Assembly: GCA_945888065.1 (NCBI GenBank)
Contig: CAMCZU010000005.1
Coordinates: 1 to 56,049, forward strand
Source: Rickettsia typhi
GTDB taxonomy: Bacteria > Pseudomonadota > Alphaproteobacteria > WRAU01 > Hepatincolaceae
Direction: 5' to 3'
DNA length: 56,049 nt
Shown: piece after piece, positions 35,486 to 48,095 of the stretch
Numbering within the stretch: the stretch's first letter is position 1
Layout of the letters: each line of letters opens with the position of its first letter
Translations under genes and position numbers: made by a program
Notes under the pieces: model-generated
What the model was told of the DNA's origin: nothing
The model's database searches: none
Seen by the model: only the letters and a program-made list of their open reading frames with translations

Positions 35486-36661
35486 ATGAAAGTAGAAAAA
35501 TTTTTTGATGAAAATACAGCAACATTTAGTTATATAGTAATAGATGAACTAACAAATAAATGTGCAATTATTGACTCCATTATGGATTATGATCACTATA
35601 GTGGTTCTGTATGTTATAAATCTGCCGATGCAATTATTGCTTATATTAAAAATAATAATTTACAAAATGAGTGGATTTTAGAAACACACATTCACGCCGA
35701 TCATATTAGTGCCGCTTATTATTTGCAAAGTAGTGTTGGTGGAAAAACAGGAATTGGCAAACATATTGGTGAGGTATTAAAATTTTGGGTTGGAGTTTTT
35801 GAAACTCAAAATGATACCCCTTTAACGGGCGAACAATTTGATGTATTATTTAATGATGGGGATAGTTTTAAAATTGGCAATTTAGATGTTAAGGTTATGC
35901 ATACTCCAGGTCATACTCCTGCTTGTGTGTGCTATTTAATAGAAACTGCTATTTTTGTGGGAGACACTATTTTTTCTCCATATGTAGGAACAGCAAGGTG
36001 TGATTTTCCAGGGGGAAGTGCAGAACAAATGTATGATTCAATCCAAAAAATTTATGCTTTGCCACCTAGCACTATGATTTATTTGTGTCATGATTATCCA
36101 CAATCTAAAGATAAATTATTATATAAGATATCTATTGAAGAACAAAAGCTAACAAACTCAATGATTAAAGCAAATACAACAAAAGAAGAATTTGTAGAAG
36201 CAAGAGAAACAAAAGATTACGGACGTGAAGTTCCAAAATTAATTATTCCATCTGTGCAAAGCAATATGAGAGGTGGATCTTTAGGTGAAAAATCTTCTGG
36301 TGGAGTGCAATTTATTAAAATTCCTCTAAATATTTTAAATAAAGATATTGGAGAATTTAAAAAAATAACATCAAAATATTATTATACAAATCATATTCCA
36401 ACTAAAATAGAAGATATTAAAAATAATGGCTTTACTAATATTATTTATTTTGCTAATAAAGTAGATGATAATTTTGTTAATTTAGCAAAAGCAAATGGTT
36501 TGTTTATTCATATAATTAATATAGATAACTCTAAGAATTTATCTGCTGAAAATATGGAGAGCTTTAAAAATATCTATAATAATCCAAACTTTAAAATATT
36601 AGGAGTATGTGAAGGTAATTTATTAAGCTTAACTGCTTGGAAAATATTAAAGGGTAAATAA
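35486..36661 (+). CDS. Persulfide dioxygenase (ETHE1-like) fused to a DUF442-like domain
   Basis: A 391-residue protein. Residues 1-240 are a metallo-beta-lactamase-fold persulfide dioxygenase: THIHADHISAAYYL (about 67-80), HTPGHTPACVCY, VGDTIFSPYVGTARCDFPGG and LCHDYP supply the iron ligands and substrate pocket. It oxidises glutathione persulfide to sulfite. Residues about 285-390 look like a degenerate DUF442/phosphatase-like domain: Cys in GVCEGNLLSLTAW replaces the C-x5-R loop, with the Arg lost. BigR-operon Blh proteins carry the same two domains but with DUF442 first, so the order here appears swapped. Confidence 0.88.
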   Translation: MKVEKFFDENTATFSYIVIDELTNKCAIIDSIMDYDHYSGSVCYKSADAIIAYIKNNNLQNEWILETHIHADHISAAYYLQSSVGGKTGIGKHIGEVLKFWVGVFETQNDTPLTGEQFDVLFNDGDSFKIGNLDVKVMHTPGHTPACVCYLIETAIFVGDTIFSPYVGTARCDFPGGSAEQMYDSIQKIYALPPSTMIYLCHDYPQSKDKLLYKISIEEQKLTNSMIKANTTKEEFVEARETKDYGREVPKLIIPSVQSNMRGGSLGEKSSGGVQFIKIPLNILNKDIGEFKKITSKYYYTNHIPTKIEDIKNNGFTNIIYFANKVDDNFVNLAKANGLFIHIINIDNSKNLSAENMESFKNIYNNPNFKILGVCEGNLLSLTAWKILKGK

Positions 36662-36668
36662 TAATAAA

Positions 36669-37457
36669 ATGTTATCTATAAGTTTTGCTATAGGGTATTT
36701 ATTAACACTTTTAGTTGGGTTAAGCATTGGTTTATTAGGTAGTGGTGGATCAATATTATTTTTGCCAATTTTGGTATATTTATTTAATATTAATCCCTCT
36801 AATGCGAACACATATTGTAATTTAATTGTTGGTATTACCTCTGCTATTGCATTTATTAATTATATTGTAAAGCATAAAATTAATGTTAAATATTGTGCTT
36901 TTTTTCTACTTTTTTCTACTTTTTTTACCTATATTGGTAAAAATTATATTGTTAATTTATTGCCTGAATTTATTTGGATTATTCCTAAAAGCTCTTTATT
37001 AATGTTAATATTTTCAGGCATTATGATTTTTGCATCTTTACAAATATCTAATTCAACACTCACAGAGAATATAAATAAAAAAGTATTATATATAAAATTT
37101 ATTTTTTCTGCTTGTTTTGTTGGGCTAATAACAGGAATGTTAGGTGCTGGTGCGGGTTTTTTAATTGTGCCAATATTTTTATCTGTCTTAAAGGTTCCTT
37201 TTTCTCAAGCTATTGGGTCATCTTTATTAATTATTGCTATAAATTCTCTCTCTTTTTTAATATATACTCCACTTAATAGTATTAACATTAGCAATGAAAT
37301 ACTACTATGTTTAGCTTTTGCAATTATAGGAATGCTTATTGCTATTTTTTTTATTAGCAATAAAATTTCTACAAACAATTTAAAAAAATTACTAAAAATT
37401 ATAATTTTATCTTTAGGGATTATTATTTTTATCTCTGAAATATTAAAGCTGGTTTAA
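36669..37457 (+). CDS. TauE/SafE-family sulfite exporter
   Basis: A 262-residue inner-membrane protein with about eight hydrophobic segments in two repeats. Both repeats show the family Gly-rich pattern: GLSIGLLGSGGSILFLPIL (about 17-35) and GLITGMLGAGAGFLIVPIF (about 150-168). Placed after the persulfide dioxygenase it would export the sulfite produced. Eight-base gap to the previous gene. Confidence 0.9.
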   Translation: MLSISFAIGYLLTLLVGLSIGLLGSGGSILFLPILVYLFNINPSNANTYCNLIVGITSAIAFINYIVKHKINVKYCAFFLLFSTFFTYIGKNYIVNLLPEFIWIIPKSSLLMLIFSGIMIFASLQISNSTLTENINKKVLYIKFIFSACFVGLITGMLGAGAGFLIVPIFLSVLKVPFSQAIGSSLLIIAINSLSFLIYTPLNSINISNEILLCLAFAIIGMLIAIFFISNKISTNNLKKLLKIIILSLGIIIFISEILKLV

Positions 37458-37628: not shown

Positions 37629-38750
37629 ATGCTTAATAAAAAAATCATCAATAATAGCAATAAAACTGAATACCTTAATGGTATTAATGATACAATATCT
37701 ACATATAATTTATTTAAAGAATTAGTAGAAACTATAGGTATAAAAAAAATAATAGATAATTTATTTATACATAAGGGTACTACTACAAGATGGTTAGCAA
37801 ATAAAAAAGTTCCTGACAATTATTTTAATGATTTAAACAGGCTTTTAAACAACAAATACCCTAGCAAATATAGCTATAGAGATCAAGATCAATTTTATAC
37901 AAATACACATACTGCTAATTATTGTTATAACAAAACTTTAAGTGTATTAAAAGAACTCAATATTGATGACAAAGATTATACTTTTATTGAACCAAGTGCT
38001 GGATGTTGTAATTTTTATAATATCTTGCCAAAAAATAGAAGAATTGGAATTGATATAGAACCTAAGGGATTTTATAGTAATGAATTAATTAAAATAAATT
38101 ATTTAGATTATAAACCAAATGATGATAAAAAATATATTGTTATTGGGAATCCTCCTTTTGGATTAAGAGGAAATTTAGCTCTTCGTTTTATTAATCATTC
38201 TTATAATTTTGCAGATGTTGTAGCATTTATTTTGCCTCCTCTTTTTAATAGCACAGGTAAGGGAGTTCCTATGAAAAGAATTCAAGGATATAAATTAGCA
38301 TATTCTGAAAAATTACCTTTAAAATCTTTTGAATATCCAAATGGTATTGCTGTTGAAATTGCTACTATCTTTCAAATTTGGGTTAAAGTAAATACTCATC
38401 TTATTAATAATGAAGTGAAAAAAACTTGTAAAACTTTTATAAAAATATATTCCTTATCAGATGGTGGCACCCCAAGTAGTACAAGAAATAAAAAGATGTT
38501 AGAAAAGTGTGATGTTTATTTACCATCTACTTGCTTTAGTGGAATGAAAGCATATAAAACATTTAATGAATTACCCAATAAAAGAGGTTATGGAATTGTA
38601 TTTTTAAAACACAATAATGAATTACATAATCTTTGCTTTAATATTATTGATTGGTCAAAAATTGCATTTTTATCTACAAATAGTGCTGTAAATTTACGCA
38701 CTGATTTAATTGAAAATGCAATTATAAAATATGGATTTTATGATGAATAA
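37629..38750 (+). CDS. Type II adenine DNA methyltransferase with N-terminal HTH-like region
   Basis: A 373-residue gamma-order methyltransferase. The SAM motif is IEPSAGCCNFYNILP (about residues 123-137), followed by GIDIEPKG and the catalytic NPPFGLRGN (about 165-173), where NPPF indicates N6-adenine or N4-cytosine methylation. The last 200 residues should recognise DNA. Residues about 30-75 (GTTTRWLANKKVPDNYFNDL) look like a helix-turn-helix of the Cro/CI type, so the enzyme may also control its own operon. AAGGAT precedes the start. The stop overlaps the partner endonuclease start region, which couples translation. The recognition sequence cannot be told. Confidence 0.82.
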   Translation: MLNKKIINNSNKTEYLNGINDTISTYNLFKELVETIGIKKIIDNLFIHKGTTTRWLANKKVPDNYFNDLNRLLNNKYPSKYSYRDQDQFYTNTHTANYCYNKTLSVLKELNIDDKDYTFIEPSAGCCNFYNILPKNRRIGIDIEPKGFYSNELIKINYLDYKPNDDKKYIVIGNPPFGLRGNLALRFINHSYNFADVVAFILPPLFNSTGKGVPMKRIQGYKLAYSEKLPLKSFEYPNGIAVEIATIFQIWVKVNTHLINNEVKKTCKTFIKIYSLSDGGTPSSTRNKKMLEKCDVYLPSTCFSGMKAYKTFNELPNKRGYGIVFLKHNNELHNLCFNIIDWSKIAFLSTNSAVNLRTDLIENAIIKYGFYDE

Positions 38751-39282
38751 TGAAATAGATGATATTGCTATACCTATTTTAAATAAAGTATTGCAAGAAG
38801 CTCAAGATGAATGGCTTGATATAAATAGTAAATATAAAGCTTATAGGAATTTACAAATTGATAAAAGAGGTAGCTTTGGAGAAAGATTTTTTGCCCAAGT
38901 ATTATCTAGTTTATATTATAGAAGATTAAAAATTGAATACAAAGATGGAGACCAAGGAGATTGGGATTTAAAATTTAATGGAATAAAATTTGAAATTAAA
39001 ACATCTTCCATAGATGTTAATAAAAAATTTCAAAATGAAGGGATTAAAAAAGATGGTAATTATGATGGTATACTTTTTTTAGGAGTAAGCCCTAATAATT
39101 TATATATTAAATTTATTCTAAAAGAAAATATACCTTTTGATACTTTGCACGATAGAAAATCTAGAGGCACTGGTTCTGGATATAAGTGGGATTTTAAAGA
39201 AAAAGATATGATAAAAATTTTGCATCTTAATGATATAAAAAATGAGTTTGAAAAACATTTTGCTTTTATGATTAATAAATAA
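38731..39282 (+). CDS. Putative type II restriction endonuclease, PD-(D/E)XK fold
   Basis: A 183-residue protein whose start overlaps the methyltransferase gene by up to 20 bases (possible ATGs at 38731, 38740, 38743). The nuclease core is readable: SFGERFFAQVLSSLYY (about 48-63) gives the Glu helix, and GDWDLKFNGIKFEIKTSS (about 81-98) gives D-x(n)-E-x-K with the catalytic Lys. I do not recognise the family by name; identification rests on the catalytic pattern plus the overlap with a modification enzyme. Gln/Asp-rich and without membrane segments. Confidence 0.78.
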   Translation: MDFMMNNEIDDIAIPILNKVLQEAQDEWLDINSKYKAYRNLQIDKRGSFGERFFAQVLSSLYYRRLKIEYKDGDQGDWDLKFNGIKFEIKTSSIDVNKKFQNEGIKKDGNYDGILFLGVSPNNLYIKFILKENIPFDTLHDRKSRGTGSGYKWDFKEKDMIKILHLNDIKNEFEKHFAFMINK

Positions 39283-39916: not shown

Positions 39917-41143
39917 TTATAAATTATAAATTAAACTAAATATTCCTATTGTTGTTAGCTCAAAACATTCATTTGGATTACCACCTATTCCACATTGTTT
40001 ACCAAATTCATCATTTAGCTTACCAAATGGAACAGAAACACCTAGAGAAAATGTTAAGTTATCTGTTGCTGAATAACTAAGAGAGATAGAATTAAAGCTA
40101 CTATAATCATACAAATTTATAGTATTTGAATATGCAAAATTTATATGTGTGCTTAGCTCCATTGTAAAGCCTATTGCCATATAGTCTTTTCCATAAAGAT
40201 AGGTATCTTCTTCTTGAAATCTGCGAACCATTGTTGCATTCATATTATATATAGCCTTATCTGCTGGTCCATTGTATCCAAAATCATTATGAAAATACTC
40301 TACATATAATGATGATGTTTTATCAAACACATCAAATGATCTCTCAATGGATACCACATACTCTAAATAAATGTTTTCTCTGTTAAATTCAGGCAACCAA
40401 AAAGATATATCTCCCCTTAATACAGACCCAAATAAAAAGCTTGTAGACATTCCTGTTGCTAATGTATAATCTTGCAAATATTGTGCTAACATTACACTAA
40501 AATCTAATGTTTCATTACTATATAAATAACGAGTTGCAAATGTTGAATCTTTTGTTGTAACATCTAAGCTTTGATGATTCCTTTTAGGATTAGCAACAAT
40601 AGCCAAAGATCCTGCATCACCTAGATTAATATTAGCATATGCCATATCTGCACCTATTTTGTAGTCTCCATCATAAAAACCTGGATTTTGTGGATTAAAA
40701 AAATCTGTTACATGAAAAATCCTACCACGAGACCAAGTAAGTGCTGTTCTACCTAATGTAAACTCATAATTATCATTATAAATTGTTGCATTAAGCCTAT
40801 CTATTTTATTAATAATTGTATAATTACTACCTGAATATACATTTGTTAAATTAAATAGAGAGTATTTATCATCTTTTACAACCAACTGCACTGGGATATC
40901 ATAATTTGTATCTTTATAGTTTTGAGTGCTTAATAGCCAATGAAATTCTGCCTTAAAATTACTATTATTTGTATAATTTACAATAAAACGATTATCAAAC
41001 CTTATATCTGCATTTTGAGTTGTATCAAAGCCTGGAACATCCATATGGTTAGCACCGCTTAATAATATATCATCATTAAAGCTAAATTCTGCTTTTAATG
41101 GAACAGATGCTAAAAAAACAAATAATATTAAATATTTTACCAT
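39917..41143 (-). CDS. Outer-membrane beta-barrel protein (DUF1302-like) of the ABC cassette
   Basis: A 408-residue exported protein: signal peptide (residues 1-18, ending PLKAEF) and then alternating aromatic-rich strands typical of a barrel, ending in a terminal strand with a C-terminal aromatic region (FSLIYNL). The segment LGRTALTWSRGRIFHVTDFF followed by NPQNPGFYDGDYKIGADMAY resembles DUF1302 porin-like proteins. Two cysteines near the C-terminus may form a disulfide in an extracellular loop. It starts one base after the ATPase gene, so it is part of the five-gene cassette and is the likely outer-membrane exit. Confidence 0.75.
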   Translation of the reverse strand: MVKYLILFVFLASVPLKAEFSFNDDILLSGANHMDVPGFDTTQNADIRFDNRFIVNYTNNSNFKAEFHWLLSTQNYKDTNYDIPVQLVVKDDKYSLFNLTNVYSGSNYTIINKIDRLNATIYNDNYEFTLGRTALTWSRGRIFHVTDFFNPQNPGFYDGDYKIGADMAYANINLGDAGSLAIVANPKRNHQSLDVTTKDSTFATRYLYSNETLDFSVMLAQYLQDYTLATGMSTSFLFGSVLRGDISFWLPEFNRENIYLEYVVSIERSFDVFDKTSSLYVEYFHNDFGYNGPADKAIYNMNATMVRRFQEEDTYLYGKDYMAIGFTMELSTHINFAYSNTINLYDYSSFNSISLSYSATDNLTFSLGVSVPFGKLNDEFGKQCGIGGNPNECFELTTIGIFSLIYNL

Positions 41144-41144
41144 T

Positions 41145-41819
41145 TTAATTAACTATTTTACCATCTTTTAGTTTTATTACTACCTCTGCCTCAGATACCA
41201 CCATTTGATCGTGAGAAGATACAACTATTGTTGTATCATATTTGTTTTTCATATCTTTCATTAATTTTATTAAAAGCTCTGAATTTTTACTATCTAAGTT
41301 TGCTGTTGGTTCATCTGCTAAAATTAAGCTTGGTTTACCTACCAAAGCACGAGCTACGGCTACCCTTTGTTGCTGTCCGCCTGAGAGTTCTTTTGGCTTT
41401 CTTTTTGCATAATCTTGTAATCCTACATCTGTTAAAACTTGCATTGATAATTCTATTGCTTCTTTCTTAGGAATTCCTTTTAAATCTAAGCTTAAAGATA
41501 CATTTTCTAAAGCGCTTAGCACAGGAAATAAATTATAAGATTGAAAAATAAAGCCTAAATTTTGTAATCTAAAATTTGCTAAATCTGATTTAGACATTTT
41601 AGAAATATCTTTATTGTTAATAATAATTTGTCCTGATGTTGCTTGATCTAGCGTGCCTAAAATATTAAGAAGAGTTGACTTACCAGAGCCTGAGGGTCCA
41701 CTTAACACTAAAAACGATCCTTTTTCTACTTCAAAGCTAACACCATCTAATGCTGATACTTCAATTTTACCTTGCTTGTATGTTCTTTTAACATCAGTTG
41801 CTGTAATAATTTTTACCAT
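41145..41819 (-). CDS. ABC transporter ATPase, LolD/MacB type
   Basis: A 224-residue MacB/LolD-family ATPase: Walker A GPSGSGKSTLLN (residues 38-49), Q-loop in FIFQSYNLFPVLSALENV, signature ELSGGQQQRVAVARAL, Walker B LILADEPTANLD, and the switch His in VVSSHDQMV. This family drives mechanotransmission through FtsX-type permeases rather than ordinary transport. It follows the second permease by 22 bases. Confidence 0.93.
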   Translation of the reverse strand: MVKIITATDVKRTYKQGKIEVSALDGVSFEVEKGSFLVLSGPSGSGKSTLLNILGTLDQATSGQIIINNKDISKMSKSDLANFRLQNLGFIFQSYNLFPVLSALENVSLSLDLKGIPKKEAIELSMQVLTDVGLQDYAKRKPKELSGGQQQRVAVARALVGKPSLILADEPTANLDSKNSELLIKLMKDMKNKYDTTIVVSSHDQMVVSEAEVVIKLKDGKIVN

Positions 41820-41841
41820 TTTTTACCTCTTTATAATAAAA

Positions 41842-43083
41842 TTAAGTTCTTTTAGATAATGCTTCTACAACATTATAACTAGCTGCTCTAATTGCTGGAT
41901 AAATACTTACAATCATACCAAACATAAATAATACTCCTGTAATTAATAAGCTATAATACATATCTAATTTTGGATAAATATAATCTCCAAGCCCAAGACC
42001 TGCAGCACCTTTAGAAAAAGCAGAAATATTAATACCAATATCTTGTAAAAAATATGTTAAAGTTATACCAACTACAAAGCCTATTCCTAAACCAATAGAT
42101 AAAATAAAAAAAGATTCAAACAATATAAATAACATTAAATATGATTTTTTTAATCCAATTGCTTGTAATACTCCAAATTCATACATTCTCTCTAACACTG
42201 AAATTAAAAGAGTATTAGATAATGGCAAAGTTGCTGCAATGAATACTATAAAAAATACTATCACCATATTAATATACATCATATCTAGCCAACCTTTTAA
42301 AAATCCTAATAAATCGCCCCAAGTGTATAAATTAAGATTTTTTGGAGTAATAACTTTTAATTTTTCGTATACTTCACTTTCTTTATTTTGATCTTGCAAT
42401 ATTATAGAAATTTCTGAAATTGAATTGTTTAAATTATAGATAGTGTTTAAATTGTTAATATCTGTAAATACATATACTTCTTCCATTTGTGGTAATGATG
42501 TTGTAAAAGTATCTGTAATAAAAAAAGCTGTTTCTATGAGTTTTTCGTTAGCATCTTGCCCTGCTACAACCACTTTGTAGCTAACTTTTGTTTGTAGCTT
42601 TTGTAATAATTCTTCACCAATTAAAATACCATTATTTTCAAAAGCTTTTTTAAAATCACCCCTGTAAGATTTTCCTATAAAAGATAAATCTTTTTCATTT
42701 TTTGTATCAATCCCTACAATAATAATGTTTCTAATGCTTCTTTCACTTTTGATAACTGCTGGAATTTCAACCCTTTTAGTTGCCCCTTTTACATAAGCCT
42801 GAGAATTAATTTTATGTAAAAATTCATCTACATTAGGAATTTTAAAATTATTTTTTACCGCTGGTTCAATTTTGTAAGCATCTGTCATAATTTTATAATT
42901 ACCTACTAAAGAGTCTAAAGCAAAATTTTTTATTTGCACACCAAACCCTTCTGAAAGGCTCAACAAAATTTGTATCATTATTAAAGATACAGAAACAATA
43001 GATATAATTGTTTTATTTTTTGCCCAATTAGCAAAAACACTTCTAAAAGCTAATTTCCATAATATATAAATATTTTTTATCAA
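41842..43083 (-). CDS. FtsX/MacB-type ABC permease (second)
   Basis: A 413-residue permease with the four-helix FtsX layout: one helix at the N-terminus (residues about 26-48), a large periplasmic domain (about 50-265), and three C-terminal helices, with the typical MYEFGVLQAIGLKKSYLML segment (about 303-321). Paired with the permease at 43098-44339, giving a heterodimer like LolCE. Fourteen bases separate the two genes. Confidence 0.88.
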   Translation of the reverse strand: MIKNIYILWKLAFRSVFANWAKNKTIISIVSVSLIMIQILLSLSEGFGVQIKNFALDSLVGNYKIMTDAYKIEPAVKNNFKIPNVDEFLHKINSQAYVKGATKRVEIPAVIKSERSIRNIIIVGIDTKNEKDLSFIGKSYRGDFKKAFENNGILIGEELLQKLQTKVSYKVVVAGQDANEKLIETAFFITDTFTTSLPQMEEVYVFTDINNLNTIYNLNNSISEISIILQDQNKESEVYEKLKVITPKNLNLYTWGDLLGFLKGWLDMMYINMVIVFFIVFIAATLPLSNTLLISVLERMYEFGVLQAIGLKKSYLMLFILFESFFILSIGLGIGFVVGITLTYFLQDIGINISAFSKGAAGLGLGDYIYPKLDMYYSLLITGVLFMFGMIVSIYPAIRAASYNVVEALSKRT

Positions 43084-43097
43084 TTTTTTAAGCCCTT

Positions 43098-44339
43098 TTA
43101 AATAGATGTTAATGATTGAATAGGATTAGATTTATTTATTTTTAAAATTGGTGGTATAATTGATAAAGAACAACATACAAATACCAAAGCTGGTCCAAAA
43201 AGTAATAATGGGTTAGTTATATCAGGATACAACACACGAGATAACATAGTTAAAGGAGCATCTTCAGGTGCATTAGAAGGAAGCGGAACCCCAATTTCAC
43301 CCAAATAATAGACTAAATAAGCTCCTATTAAAGAACCTATAATTACTGATACTCCACAAAGTAGCAAATTTTCATAAAATAAAATGTATTTAAAATATTT
43401 GTTATCTAGCCCAATTGAACTTAAAATTCCAAATTCTGGTATTCTTTTCACCGTAGCAAGCATCATAGAATTTAAAACGGTAAAGGCAATTAATGCTACA
43501 AAAATAACATAAATTACTGCACTTGTAAGAAATTGAAAGTCAAGAGCTTGCTTAACCCCTGGCAATACTTCTTGCCAATCCATTATTTTAATATTTGCTG
43601 GAGCAACACTTTTAAGTTTTTTAAGTAAATCATTTCTTAAAGTGCTATCTTGAAGTTTAATTGTAATATTTGTAAATTGAGAATCTTCATAAAAAATATT
43701 AGAAGAAAAATAACTTCTATTAATAAAAGCTGTAGCTTTATCTAACTGCATATCCCCTATTTGATAAATTCCTTTAACAACAAAAGAGTCTATTACAAAA
43801 CTATCATAGATATCATTTGTCATCAATACAACTTCATCGCCTACTTTAAGCCTTAAAAACTCTGCTAAATCTTTACCAATTAAAATTTTATTAGTATCTT
43901 CGTTGCTTAAATATTCGCCACTTGTTATTTTTTGTGAAACAAGAGATGTATAGACTTCATCTTGTGTGTCTGTTCCTACTAATTGAAAAGAATAGTTTTT
44001 GTTATTTGCATCTGCTAAACCAAAACTAATGTCTCTTTTTGTATAATACACTTTAGTTTTATTATAAGATTTTAAAACTTCTAGGACTTTTTCTACATCT
44101 TTAAGATTTATAAATTTATCATAATTTTCTACATCTTCATACTCAACGTTTCTAATTTGAATATCACCTGTAAATACTTTTGTATAGCTATCTTCTAGTA
44201 ATTTAGAAGCTCCTGTTAAAAACCCAACATTTACAAAAAGCATTATGGTTGTAAAAATTATCATTGTGCCTAAGAGTGTTGTTTGTAGCTTTCTTCTTAA
44301 TACATTTCTTAAAGAAACTTTAAATAGGATTTTTTGCAT
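43098..44339 (-). CDS. FtsX/MacB-type ABC permease (first)
   Basis: A 413-residue permease with the same four-helix layout: N-terminal helix (residues 20-44), periplasmic domain, and a C-terminal FtsX domain with RIPEFGILSSIGLDNKYF (about 299-316). The equal length and layout of the two permeases suggest an old duplication. It lies 19 bases after the LolA-like gene. Confidence 0.88.
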   Translation of the reverse strand: MQKILFKVSLRNVLRRKLQTTLLGTMIIFTTIMLFVNVGFLTGASKLLEDSYTKVFTGDIQIRNVEYEDVENYDKFINLKDVEKVLEVLKSYNKTKVYYTKRDISFGLADANNKNYSFQLVGTDTQDEVYTSLVSQKITSGEYLSNEDTNKILIGKDLAEFLRLKVGDEVVLMTNDIYDSFVIDSFVVKGIYQIGDMQLDKATAFINRSYFSSNIFYEDSQFTNITIKLQDSTLRNDLLKKLKSVAPANIKIMDWQEVLPGVKQALDFQFLTSAVIYVIFVALIAFTVLNSMMLATVKRIPEFGILSSIGLDNKYFKYILFYENLLLCGVSVIIGSLIGAYLVYYLGEIGVPLPSNAPEDAPLTMLSRVLYPDITNPLLLFGPALVFVCCSLSIIPPILKINKSNPIQSLTSI

Positions 44340-44358
44340 CTATTTACTCTTATATAAT

Positions 44359-45105
44359 TTATTGTTTTTCTAATGTGTTTAGGGTAAAAAAATTATCCGC
44401 TATGCTTTCATTTAGCTTAATATCATTAGTAATAAACTCTGTGGTATAGCCTTCTTTTTCTAGATTATAAGCTTTCATATGCTTTATAATTGCTTGACCA
44501 TCTACAACAGATATGTCTAGGGCTTCAAACCTTTTAATTTTTTTACCACTTTGATCATAAAAATCTTTCCATACCAAAGCAAAATCTTTTCTAATAGCGG
44601 TTATTTCTTTTCCCCACACTACTGGAGCATCTTTTTTTGGGATACTTTCAATTATATATACAGCTTGACCCTTATATACATCTTCTTTAATTAATTTATA
44701 ATCATAATCATTAAGAGCAGACTTAGATTTAGAGATATCATCATAAGATAAATCTGAACCCATCCAAGACTTAGATTTTAGTGAATTAGAAATTTTGATA
44801 CTTCTTTTAGATTTTGGACTATAAGTCCACATAGAATCATTATTTACTAGCACAGCTTGACCTTTAAATTTTGCTGGAGCTAAAAATTTTGAGATTGATA
44901 AATCATCACCCTTAGTCCAAGATTTTAGTGTCATTGTGTCTACTCTATCTGGTCTTGTTATAACCATTGTCATATTTGCAACTGAAGATTTTGTTCCTCT
45001 CCACGCTTCGTAGCTTTTGTCTATAATGTCTTTAGCATCCATAGAGTGTGCTATGCTTGATATAAAAATAAATACAAATACAAAACCTAAAGCTTTATTT
45101 TTCAT
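44359..45105 (-). CDS. LolA-like periplasmic lipid/lipoprotein-binding protein
   Basis: A 248-residue exported protein (signal peptide residues 1-21, ending IAHS) of the outer-membrane lipoprotein-sorting family (COG2834, PF17131 type). The half-barrel strands begin with SVANMTMVITRPDRVDTMTL, then WTKGDDLSISKFLAPAKFKG and MWTYSPKSKRSIKIS, which are typical. Members of this group often accompany MMPL/RND or MacB-like exporters rather than acting as the housekeeping LolA. It is first in the cassette and is the likely shuttle across the periplasm. Confidence 0.85.
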   Translation of the reverse strand: MKNKALGFVFVFIFISSIAHSMDAKDIIDKSYEAWRGTKSSVANMTMVITRPDRVDTMTLKSWTKGDDLSISKFLAPAKFKGQAVLVNNDSMWTYSPKSKRSIKISNSLKSKSWMGSDLSYDDISKSKSALNDYDYKLIKEDVYKGQAVYIIESIPKKDAPVVWGKEITAIRKDFALVWKDFYDQSGKKIKRFEALDISVVDGQAIIKHMKAYNLEKEGYTTEFITNDIKLNESIADNFFTLNTLEKQ

Positions 45106-47399: not shown

Positions 47400-48095
47400 T
47401 TATATAAAAGTACTTTTTAATCTTTTTTCTAAACTATTTTTAAAGATTTTTTTAAATTTTTTAAAAACTAACAATGAATGTATATATTTAGCTACATAAG
47501 TATTAAAAAATGCAACTAATTTAAATTTAAAGCTATATTTTGGAGATACAAAAAACTTTGCATAAAAATACCAATAAGTTAGCCCTTTGCTAGAAAATTT
47601 TCTAAAAGTAGACATACACCAAGGTTTTCTACCTATATAATGTATTAAAGCTAGATTTTGAAATGCCTTGTGTGTTAAATTTATATACATTTTAGATACA
47701 AAGGATAACACATTAGCATCTACAATATATTTAATATAAGATTTATAAGAACTGCCCATAAGATATTCTTCTGTAAGCTGGTATCCTCCCTGCTAATAAA
47801 TACATTGAATTATATAGTATGCTCCCCAGTGCATATTAGGAAAGCTAATATTATGATATTGTGGATTAGATGCAACATTTATTAAATCAATTTTAATATT
47901 ATGCAAATTATTTTGTTTAAAAATTTGTAAATATTTTGTTAAATCTCCCTCTACAATATCTCCATTGTGGATTATATAAATATTTAAGCTATGTTTTTAA
48001 TTATTAATAGCTAAAGAAAGTGAGGTAATCATTACATAAATTAAATGATTTTTATTTATACAAAAGGCAATATTTATATTATTATTTTGATTCAT
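47400..48095 (-). pseudogene. Decayed family 8 glycosyltransferase gene
   Basis: Reading all minus frames rebuilds a GT8 (LPS-type hexosyltransferase) gene. ATG 48095 opens NINIAFCINKNHLIYVMITS, ended by TAA at 47997-47999. The same frame continues KHSLNIYIIHNGDIVEGD and MHWGAYYIIQCIY, then a TAG; one frame over gives LLAGRIPAYRRISYG, the usual continuation. The frame then changes again into a 119-residue open stretch (47400-47759) with YIVDANVLSF and IHYIGRKPW, the GT8 C-terminal motif. The central DxD sugar-nucleotide region is missing, so there is one stop, at least one frameshift, and a deletion. No active enzyme is possible. It leaves 47760-48144 without an intact gene. Confidence 0.88.

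What the first reader, a model, noticed from the sequence alone, without database searches (positions are those of the whole stretch)
39917..45105. Five-gene LolA-ABC-barrel cassette: candidate undescribed envelope export system
One tight operon (gaps of 1-22 bases) encodes a LolA-like shuttle, two equal-length FtsX-type permeases, a LolD/MacB ATPase, and a DUF1302-like outer-membrane barrel. That covers inner membrane, periplasm and outer membrane, without a MacA-type adaptor or TolC. It resembles LolCDE with a dedicated exit pore. A lipid, lipoprotein or lipophilic compound moved to or through the outer membrane is the likely cargo, but no cargo gene is adjacent; ohr follows after 29 bases.
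Basis: partly seen in the sequence, partly recalled or inferred. Interest (0 to 1): 0.65.

Follow-up and report, generated by a model that had tools for sequence, protein, structure and literature searches.

The report
Widespread LolA–ABC–porin lipid exporter operon
Five adjacent genes, kept together in the same order in bacteria of at least nine phyla, encode what looks like an ATP-powered pump, a fat-carrying shuttle and an outer-membrane pore that together probably move an unidentified greasy molecule to or through the bacterial outer membrane.

Summary
On the minus strand, five genes (LolA-like PF17131, two LolC/E-type permeases, a LolD/MacB-type ATPase, an outer-membrane barrel) lie 1-22 bases apart at the stated coordinates. 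The genome also has canonical lolA, one lolC/E-type permease gene and a neighbouring ATPase, so this is not the housekeeping Lol system. The barrel is predicted as an 18-strand OprD/AlgE-type porin, most conserved around its third loop. Homologous LolA-like/barrel pairs also occur with RND-MMPL pumps instead of the ABC engine, which favours a lipid or lipophilic small molecule over a lipoprotein. Both permeases have the LolC Hook hairpin shortened by five residues (44/44 and 38/40), so the hand-off to the shuttle probably differs from LolC-LolA. Cargo and direction are unproven. Nearest described relatives: AmeABCD (RND version) and Borrelia BBJ23-29 (Omp85 version). No description of this exact cassette was found in the library searched. 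New variant of a known kind.

The parts
44359..45105 (-). LolA-like periplasmic carrier (PF17131), 248 aa, signal peptide, no lipobox; first gene of the operon, preceded by an AGAGG ribosome-binding site
   Evidence: PF17131 164 bits; solved relatives 3bk5, 4z48, 3buu, 9tp6; a lipobox-like motif in 1 of 56 homologues; upstream sequence
43098..44339 (-). Permease A, LolC/E-type (type VII ABC), 413 aa, shortened Hook hairpin
   Evidence: FtsX + MacB_PCD; TIGR02212 lolCE 73 bits, below cutoff 362; AF2 pLDDT 92, best fold LolE/LolC Z 27-29; hairpin 21 aa in 44/44 homologues against 26 in LolE/LolF and the host's own LolC/E
41842..43083 (-). Permease B, LolC/E-type, 413 aa (TTG start), paralogue of A
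   Evidence: FtsX; TIGR02212 105 bits, below cutoff; separate clade from A across phyla
41145..41819 (-). ABC ATPase of LolD/MacB type, 224 aa, Walker A, signature and Walker B motifs intact by eye
   Evidence: PF00005 119 bits; best NCBIfam LolD 233 bits, below cutoff 308
39917..41143 (-). Outer-membrane beta-barrel, 408 aa, signal peptide, about 18 strands, conserved third loop (residues ~134-164); distant DUF1302 relative
   Evidence: AF2 pLDDT 90.1, pTM 0.86; OprD/Occ, BenF-like, AlgE porins at Z ~22-23; 8/51 homologues hit DUF1302

Best explanation
It is a dedicated, chaperone-bridged exporter of a lipophilic non-protein molecule (a lipid, or a toxic or secreted hydrophobic compound). [quoted passage not shown] The soluble LolA-like protein takes it into its hydrophobic half-barrel and carries it across the periplasm (inferred from the fold). 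The 18-strand porin-like barrel receives it and releases it into or through the outer membrane past its third loop (inferred from the model). Shown here: the composition, order, predicted folds, cross-phylum co-inheritance and independence from the housekeeping Lol genes. Not shown: cargo, direction, and physical contact between the parts.
For: Five-gene order conserved in about 60/65 distant loci in at least nine phyla and in all 6 further alphaproteobacterial genomes read. Subunit distance matrices correlate r 0.83-0.93, shuffled maximum 0.10; the two permease clades largely mirror each other. Canonical lolA, lolC/E and an adjacent ATPase lie elsewhere, so the function is additional. The barrel is porin-like. 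Homologous LolA-like/barrel pairs are driven by MMPL pumps with sterol-sensing-type domains in other class members, and that pump class includes the hopanoid transporter HpnN and the monoterpene efflux pump AmeD (PMC6394551). TetR-family regulators precede 22 of 60 cassettes.
Against: No cargo gene recurs beside the cassette. A porin-like barrel is a usual route for water-soluble molecules and has no demonstrated path for lipids. The permeases' best structural match is LolE, a lipoprotein extractor. A Thalassolituus MMPL-LolA fusion with a porin gene was induced by growth on long alkanes (PMC6304351), which would also fit uptake.
Confidence: 0.58

Rival explanations
1. A second lipoprotein-sorting (Lol) pathway for a special lipoprotein class, with the barrel as insertase or surface-exposure pore instead of LolB.
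For: Permeases and ATPase are closest to LolC/E/F and LolD; the carrier is of the LolA fold; Borrelia BBJ23-29 was read this way as one option (PMC13078400).
Against: All three Lol-like transporter proteins score far below the Lol equivalog cutoffs. The Hook hairpin, the essential LolA recruiter in E. coli LolC (PMC10865981), is five residues shorter in both permeases. Homologous LolA-like/barrel pairs also occur with MMPL pumps, a class not known to me to move lipoproteins. No lipoprotein gene is linked.
Confidence: 0.18
2. Uptake or retrograde transport: the barrel takes in a hydrophobic nutrient or returns mislocalised lipid, the LolA-like protein carries it inward, and the ABC complex places it in the inner membrane.
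For: Thalassolituus MMPL-LolA/porin proteins are induced on n-C28 alkane (PMC6304351); Bacteroidetes MMPL/LolA-like operons are among the strongest iron- or hemin-limitation-induced genes (PMC10470040, PMC10434189); the barrel is porin-like.
Against: Characterised type VII ABC proteins extract or push outward and no importer is known to me; deletion of ameABCD lowered monoterpene tolerance and raised net dye influx, which fits efflux (PMC6394551); the genome has a separate mlaE gene.
Confidence: 0.15
3. A MacAB-like efflux system in which the parts form a fixed conduit and the LolA-like protein acts as adaptor.
For: FtsX/MacB_PCD domains; AmeB and AmeC were proposed as adaptors for the RND version (PMC6394551).
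Against: The LolA-like protein is a small soluble protein with no lipobox (1/56 homologues) and no HlyD/MacA-type domain; the barrel model has no TolC-like periplasmic helical tunnel.
Confidence: 0.09

Closest known systems
LolA-LolCDE lipoprotein sorting pathway
   Same: Heteromeric type VII permease pair, LolD-type ATPase and soluble LolA-fold carrier; permease model closest to LolE/LolC (Z 27-29)
   Different: Scores below all Lol equivalog cutoffs; carrier is PF17131, not PF03548; shortened Hook hairpin; own barrel instead of LolB; coexists with canonical lolA and lolC/E genes
AmeABCD of Castellaniella defragrans (PMC6394551) and the MMPL/LolA_like/barrel operons
   Same: LolA-superfamily periplasmic protein plus DUF1302-type barrel plus inner-membrane pump
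   Different: Engine is an RND/MMPL pump instead of an ATP-driven ABC; Ame carrier is DUF1329; extra protein AmeC
Borrelia BBJ23-29 (PMC13078400)
   Same: LolA-like carrier, LolE/MacB-like type VII ABC and outer-membrane barrel in one cluster; same proposed logic
   Different: Omp85-type barrel, homodimeric permease, extra TPR proteins; the cluster is reported only in Borrelia
MacAB-TolC
   Same: Type VII ABC engine with MacB-type periplasmic domain
   Different: No MacA, no TolC; permease and ATPase are separate genes, with two different permeases

Membership tests
Type VII (LolCDE/MacB) ABC transporters | FtsX-type permease with large periplasmic domain after TM1, separate or fused ATPase | tested here: met
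   Pfam FtsX/MacB_PCD; AF2 model best matched by LolC/LolE at Z 27-29
LolCDE proper | Scores above the LolC/E and LolD equivalog cutoffs | tested here: not met
   105 and 73 bits against 362; 233 against 308; the genome's own LolC/E scores 413
LolCDE proper | LolC Hook hairpin that enters LolA | tested here: inconclusive
   Hairpin 21 aa in 44/44 permA and, in register, 38/40 permB, against 26 in the host's LolC/E, LolF and LolE; LolE is also 26 aa yet does not bind LolA in vitro, so length alone does not decide
LolCDE proper | Transports triacylated lipoproteins | not testable with these tools
   Needs experiment
PF17131 LolA_like | Profile match over the curated cutoff | tested here: met
   164 bits against 30, full length of the profile
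PF03548 LolA | Profile match in the cassette carrier | tested here: not met
   The only PF03548 match in the genome is on contig C3, outside this locus
DUF1302 (PF06980) barrels | Profile match | tested here: inconclusive
   No hit for the window protein; 8 of 51 homologues hit, best 6e-5
OprD/AlgE-type 18-strand porins (fold only) | 18-strand barrel fold | tested here: met
   AF2 model with about 18 strands; Z 22-23 to OprD/Occ and AlgE; sequence identity only about 8%, so a shared fold, not shown family membership
MacAB-TolC | MacA adaptor and TolC in the operon | tested here: not met
   Absent from the window cassette and from the recurring gene set of the relatives; a HlyD-type gene is the next gene in 3 of 54 loci only
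Ame-type HAE3 RND cassettes | RND/MMPL pump in the operon | tested here: not met
   No MMPL gene at the locus; the genome's only MMPL-profile matches (two stretches) lie on contig C10
Borrelia BBJ23-29-type cluster | Omp85-type barrel and TPR proteins | tested here: not met
   Barrel model matches OprD/AlgE-type porins best; no TPR gene recurs next to the cassette in the neighbour tallies

The most novel reading that the evidence does not exclude
The LolA-like/porin-barrel pair is a general periplasm-to-outer-membrane lipid delivery module that bacteria couple to interchangeable engines (heterodimeric ABC, single-permease ABC, or RND-MMPL, sometimes perhaps fused). That would be a third route across the envelope beside conduits (TolC) and bridges (Lpt/AsmA-like), with a Hook-independent hand-off from a LolC/E-type transporter.
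Probability: 0.4. Interest if true: 0.78.

Novelty: new variant of a known kind. Interest (0 to 1): 0.5.

Why it matters
How lipids and other greasy molecules other than LPS and lipoproteins reach the outer membrane and cell surface is a long-standing open question. A self-contained operon of five proteins, present across many phyla including culturable Shewanella and Photobacterium, makes a shuttle-and-pore route directly testable, and would give a function to several families now annotated only as 'outer membrane lipoprotein-sorting protein' or 'hypothetical protein'.

Tried and rejected
(1) Housekeeping Lol: rejected, canonical genes found elsewhere. (2) Ohr/OsmC or GcrA as parts: OsmC is not conserved downstream; GcrA precedes the cassette only in this family, as a conserved chromosomal position. 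(3) Hopanoid cargo in this lineage: no squalene-hopene cyclase profile match in four family genomes. (4) A linked cargo gene: neighbour tallies gave only TetR upstream and nothing recurrent downstream. (5) The first genome scan with the single permease found no relatives; the alignment was needed. (6) Solved structures by sequence for the barrel: none. (7) The plasmid collection gave 3 distant hits: one record without annotation, one with none at the match, and a Bdellovibrio plasmid naming only an ATPase and a permease. (8) Promoter and terminator scan at chance level. (10) Papers: no description of this exact five-gene cassette in nine library searches; subscription papers and preprints are not held, so this is weak evidence of absence.
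Full report
Observation. Domain searches give PF17131 LolA_like at 164 bits, FtsX for both permeases and ABC_tran for the ATPase; the window barrel has no Pfam or NCBIfam match.

Not the housekeeping system. The window's genome (867,558 bases, 26 contigs, 86% complete) has one canonical PF03548 lolA on contig C3 and one true lolC/E-type permease on C9 (413 bits, over the cutoff), followed by an ATPase of the same transporter type. The cassette permeases score 105 and 73 bits on the same profile (cutoff 362). LpxC and MlaE genes are present too, so the organism has the makings of an LPS-type outer membrane and a separate Mla-type gene.

Conservation. All three other genomes of the same family carry the same five genes in the same order; a GcrA-related gene lies one to three genes upstream in each, but the other flanks differ. 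A genome-contig scan with an alignment of permease A found 204 relatives, 80 kept. Iterated profiles built in the box then found LolA-like, permease, ATPase and barrel genes in nearly all. After removing duplicates, 53 loci show the exact order. By room on the contig, 57 of 80 are complete, 15 are cut by contig ends and 8 are other; three of those eight (L066, L109, L131) are complete when overlapping start calls are read by hand, giving about 60 of 65. The true exceptions include single-permease loci in Omnitrophota (L069, L117) and a Chloroflexota-labelled bin without LolA or barrel (L070). Complete sets occur in records labelled Pseudomonadota, Bacteroidota, Myxococcota, Thermodesulfobacteriota, Campylobacterota, Deferribacterota, Calditrichota, Rhodothermota and Poribacteria; most are metagenome bins, so individual labels may be wrong. 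Within the class the barrel is patchy: about 10 of 385 genomes have a strong match, and the six of these newly read all have the full cassette. Across the phylum sample 55 of 398 genomes match, most of them from one family code; in the loci read, an ATPase or permease gene lies directly beside the barrel in 26 of 29, and the other three have the barrel near a contig end or show no partner in the short stretch held.

Co-inheritance. Pairwise distance matrices of the five proteins in 56 loci correlate at r 0.83-0.93; shuffling locus labels gives at most 0.10. This shows that the genes travel together, not that they touch. Permeases A and B form two clades that largely mirror each other, with few misplaced rows (quick tree, LG+G4, no bootstrap), consistent with an old duplication before the spread across phyla.

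The barrel. AlphaFold2 with 51 sequences gives pLDDT 90.1 and a barrel of about 18 strands. The closest solved folds are OprD/Occ porins, BenF-like porin and AlgE (Z 22-23, rmsd 3.1-4.3 A, about 300 aligned residues, identity about 8%). Homologues end in Phe in 41 of 56 cases, as expected for a BAM substrate. Eight of 51 homologues touch DUF1302.

The permeases and the Hook. Permease A models well (pLDDT 92.1) and is closest to LolE and LolC (Z 27-29), ahead of HrtB, MacB, YbbP and FtsX. In E. coli the LolC Hook (aa 167-179) is the essential recruiter of LolA and is predicted to enter LolA in all species modelled (PMC10865981). The corresponding hairpin, counted between two conserved anchor positions, is 26 aa in LolF, LolE and the window genome's own LolC/E, but 21 aa in 44 of 44 permease A and, in register, in 38 of 40 permease B sequences. 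LolE also has 26 and does not bind LolA in vitro, so the short hairpin is a prediction of a different hand-off, not proof.

Interchangeable engines. In other class members homologous LolA-like and barrel genes (barrel scores 39-85 bits on the iterated profile) lie beside MMPL/RND pumps carrying sterol-sensing/Patched-type domains, beside a single ABC permease plus ATPase (L046, L047, L165), or with a 1044-aa protein that contains the LolA-like match (L164; its pump part was not tested). The published AmeABCD system has this logic with an RND pump, and its deletion lowers tolerance to monoterpenes (PMC6394551). MMPL/LolA-like/hypothetical-protein operons with a TetR gene are among the most strongly induced genes of Porphyromonas and Prevotella under hemin or iron limitation (PMC10470040, PMC10434189). 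A Thalassolituus MMPL-LolA fusion and its neighbouring porin are induced on long alkanes (PMC6304351). Borrelia BBJ23-29 joins a LolE-like ABC, a LolA-like protein and an Omp85 barrel (PMC13078400). These make a lipophilic small molecule or lipid the most economical cargo class, and make lipoproteins less likely.

Mechanism and limits. Proposed: ATP-driven extraction from the inner membrane, transfer to the LolA-like carrier, diffusion across the periplasm, docking on the barrel and release into or through the outer membrane. Composition, order, predicted folds and co-inheritance are shown; every transport step, the direction and the cargo are inferred. TetR-family genes before 22 of 60 cassettes suggest inducible use in many hosts; in the window's lineage the upstream gene is gcrA instead, and no TetR gene is adjacent.

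Verdict. A real, ancient and widely shared system; the exact cassette was not found in the literature library, but close mechanistic cousins are described. New variant of a known kind, interest 0.5.

Noticed in passing
37629-39282 (+): Compact restriction-modification pair next to the cassette: a type II methyltransferase (PADLOC MTase_II, 2e-50) overlapping a small type II restriction enzyme-like gene (2e-6). Neither has a Pfam hit.
   Followed up: partly
35486-37457 (+): Metallo-beta-lactamase-fold protein, which by eye ends in a rhodanese-like stretch, followed by a TauE/SafE permease: resembles a persulfide dioxygenase/sulfite export pair.
   Followed up: no
L037:7819-10919 (G003 contig C8): A family relative carries, besides the ABC cassette, a second LolA-like gene beside an MMPL pump: both engine types in one small genome.
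   Followed up: partly
L164:3992-7126: A 1044-aa protein whose sequence contains a LolA-like match, followed by a barrel gene; by length possibly a pump-carrier fusion like Thalassolituus TOL_3187.
   Followed up: no
upstream neighbours of loci L052-L131: Two cassettes have an FeeM-type N-acyl amino acid synthase (GNAT) gene directly upstream: a possible cargo clue.
   Followed up: no
47400-47759 (-): 119-aa ORF between lysK and ubiD without Pfam match.
   Followed up: no
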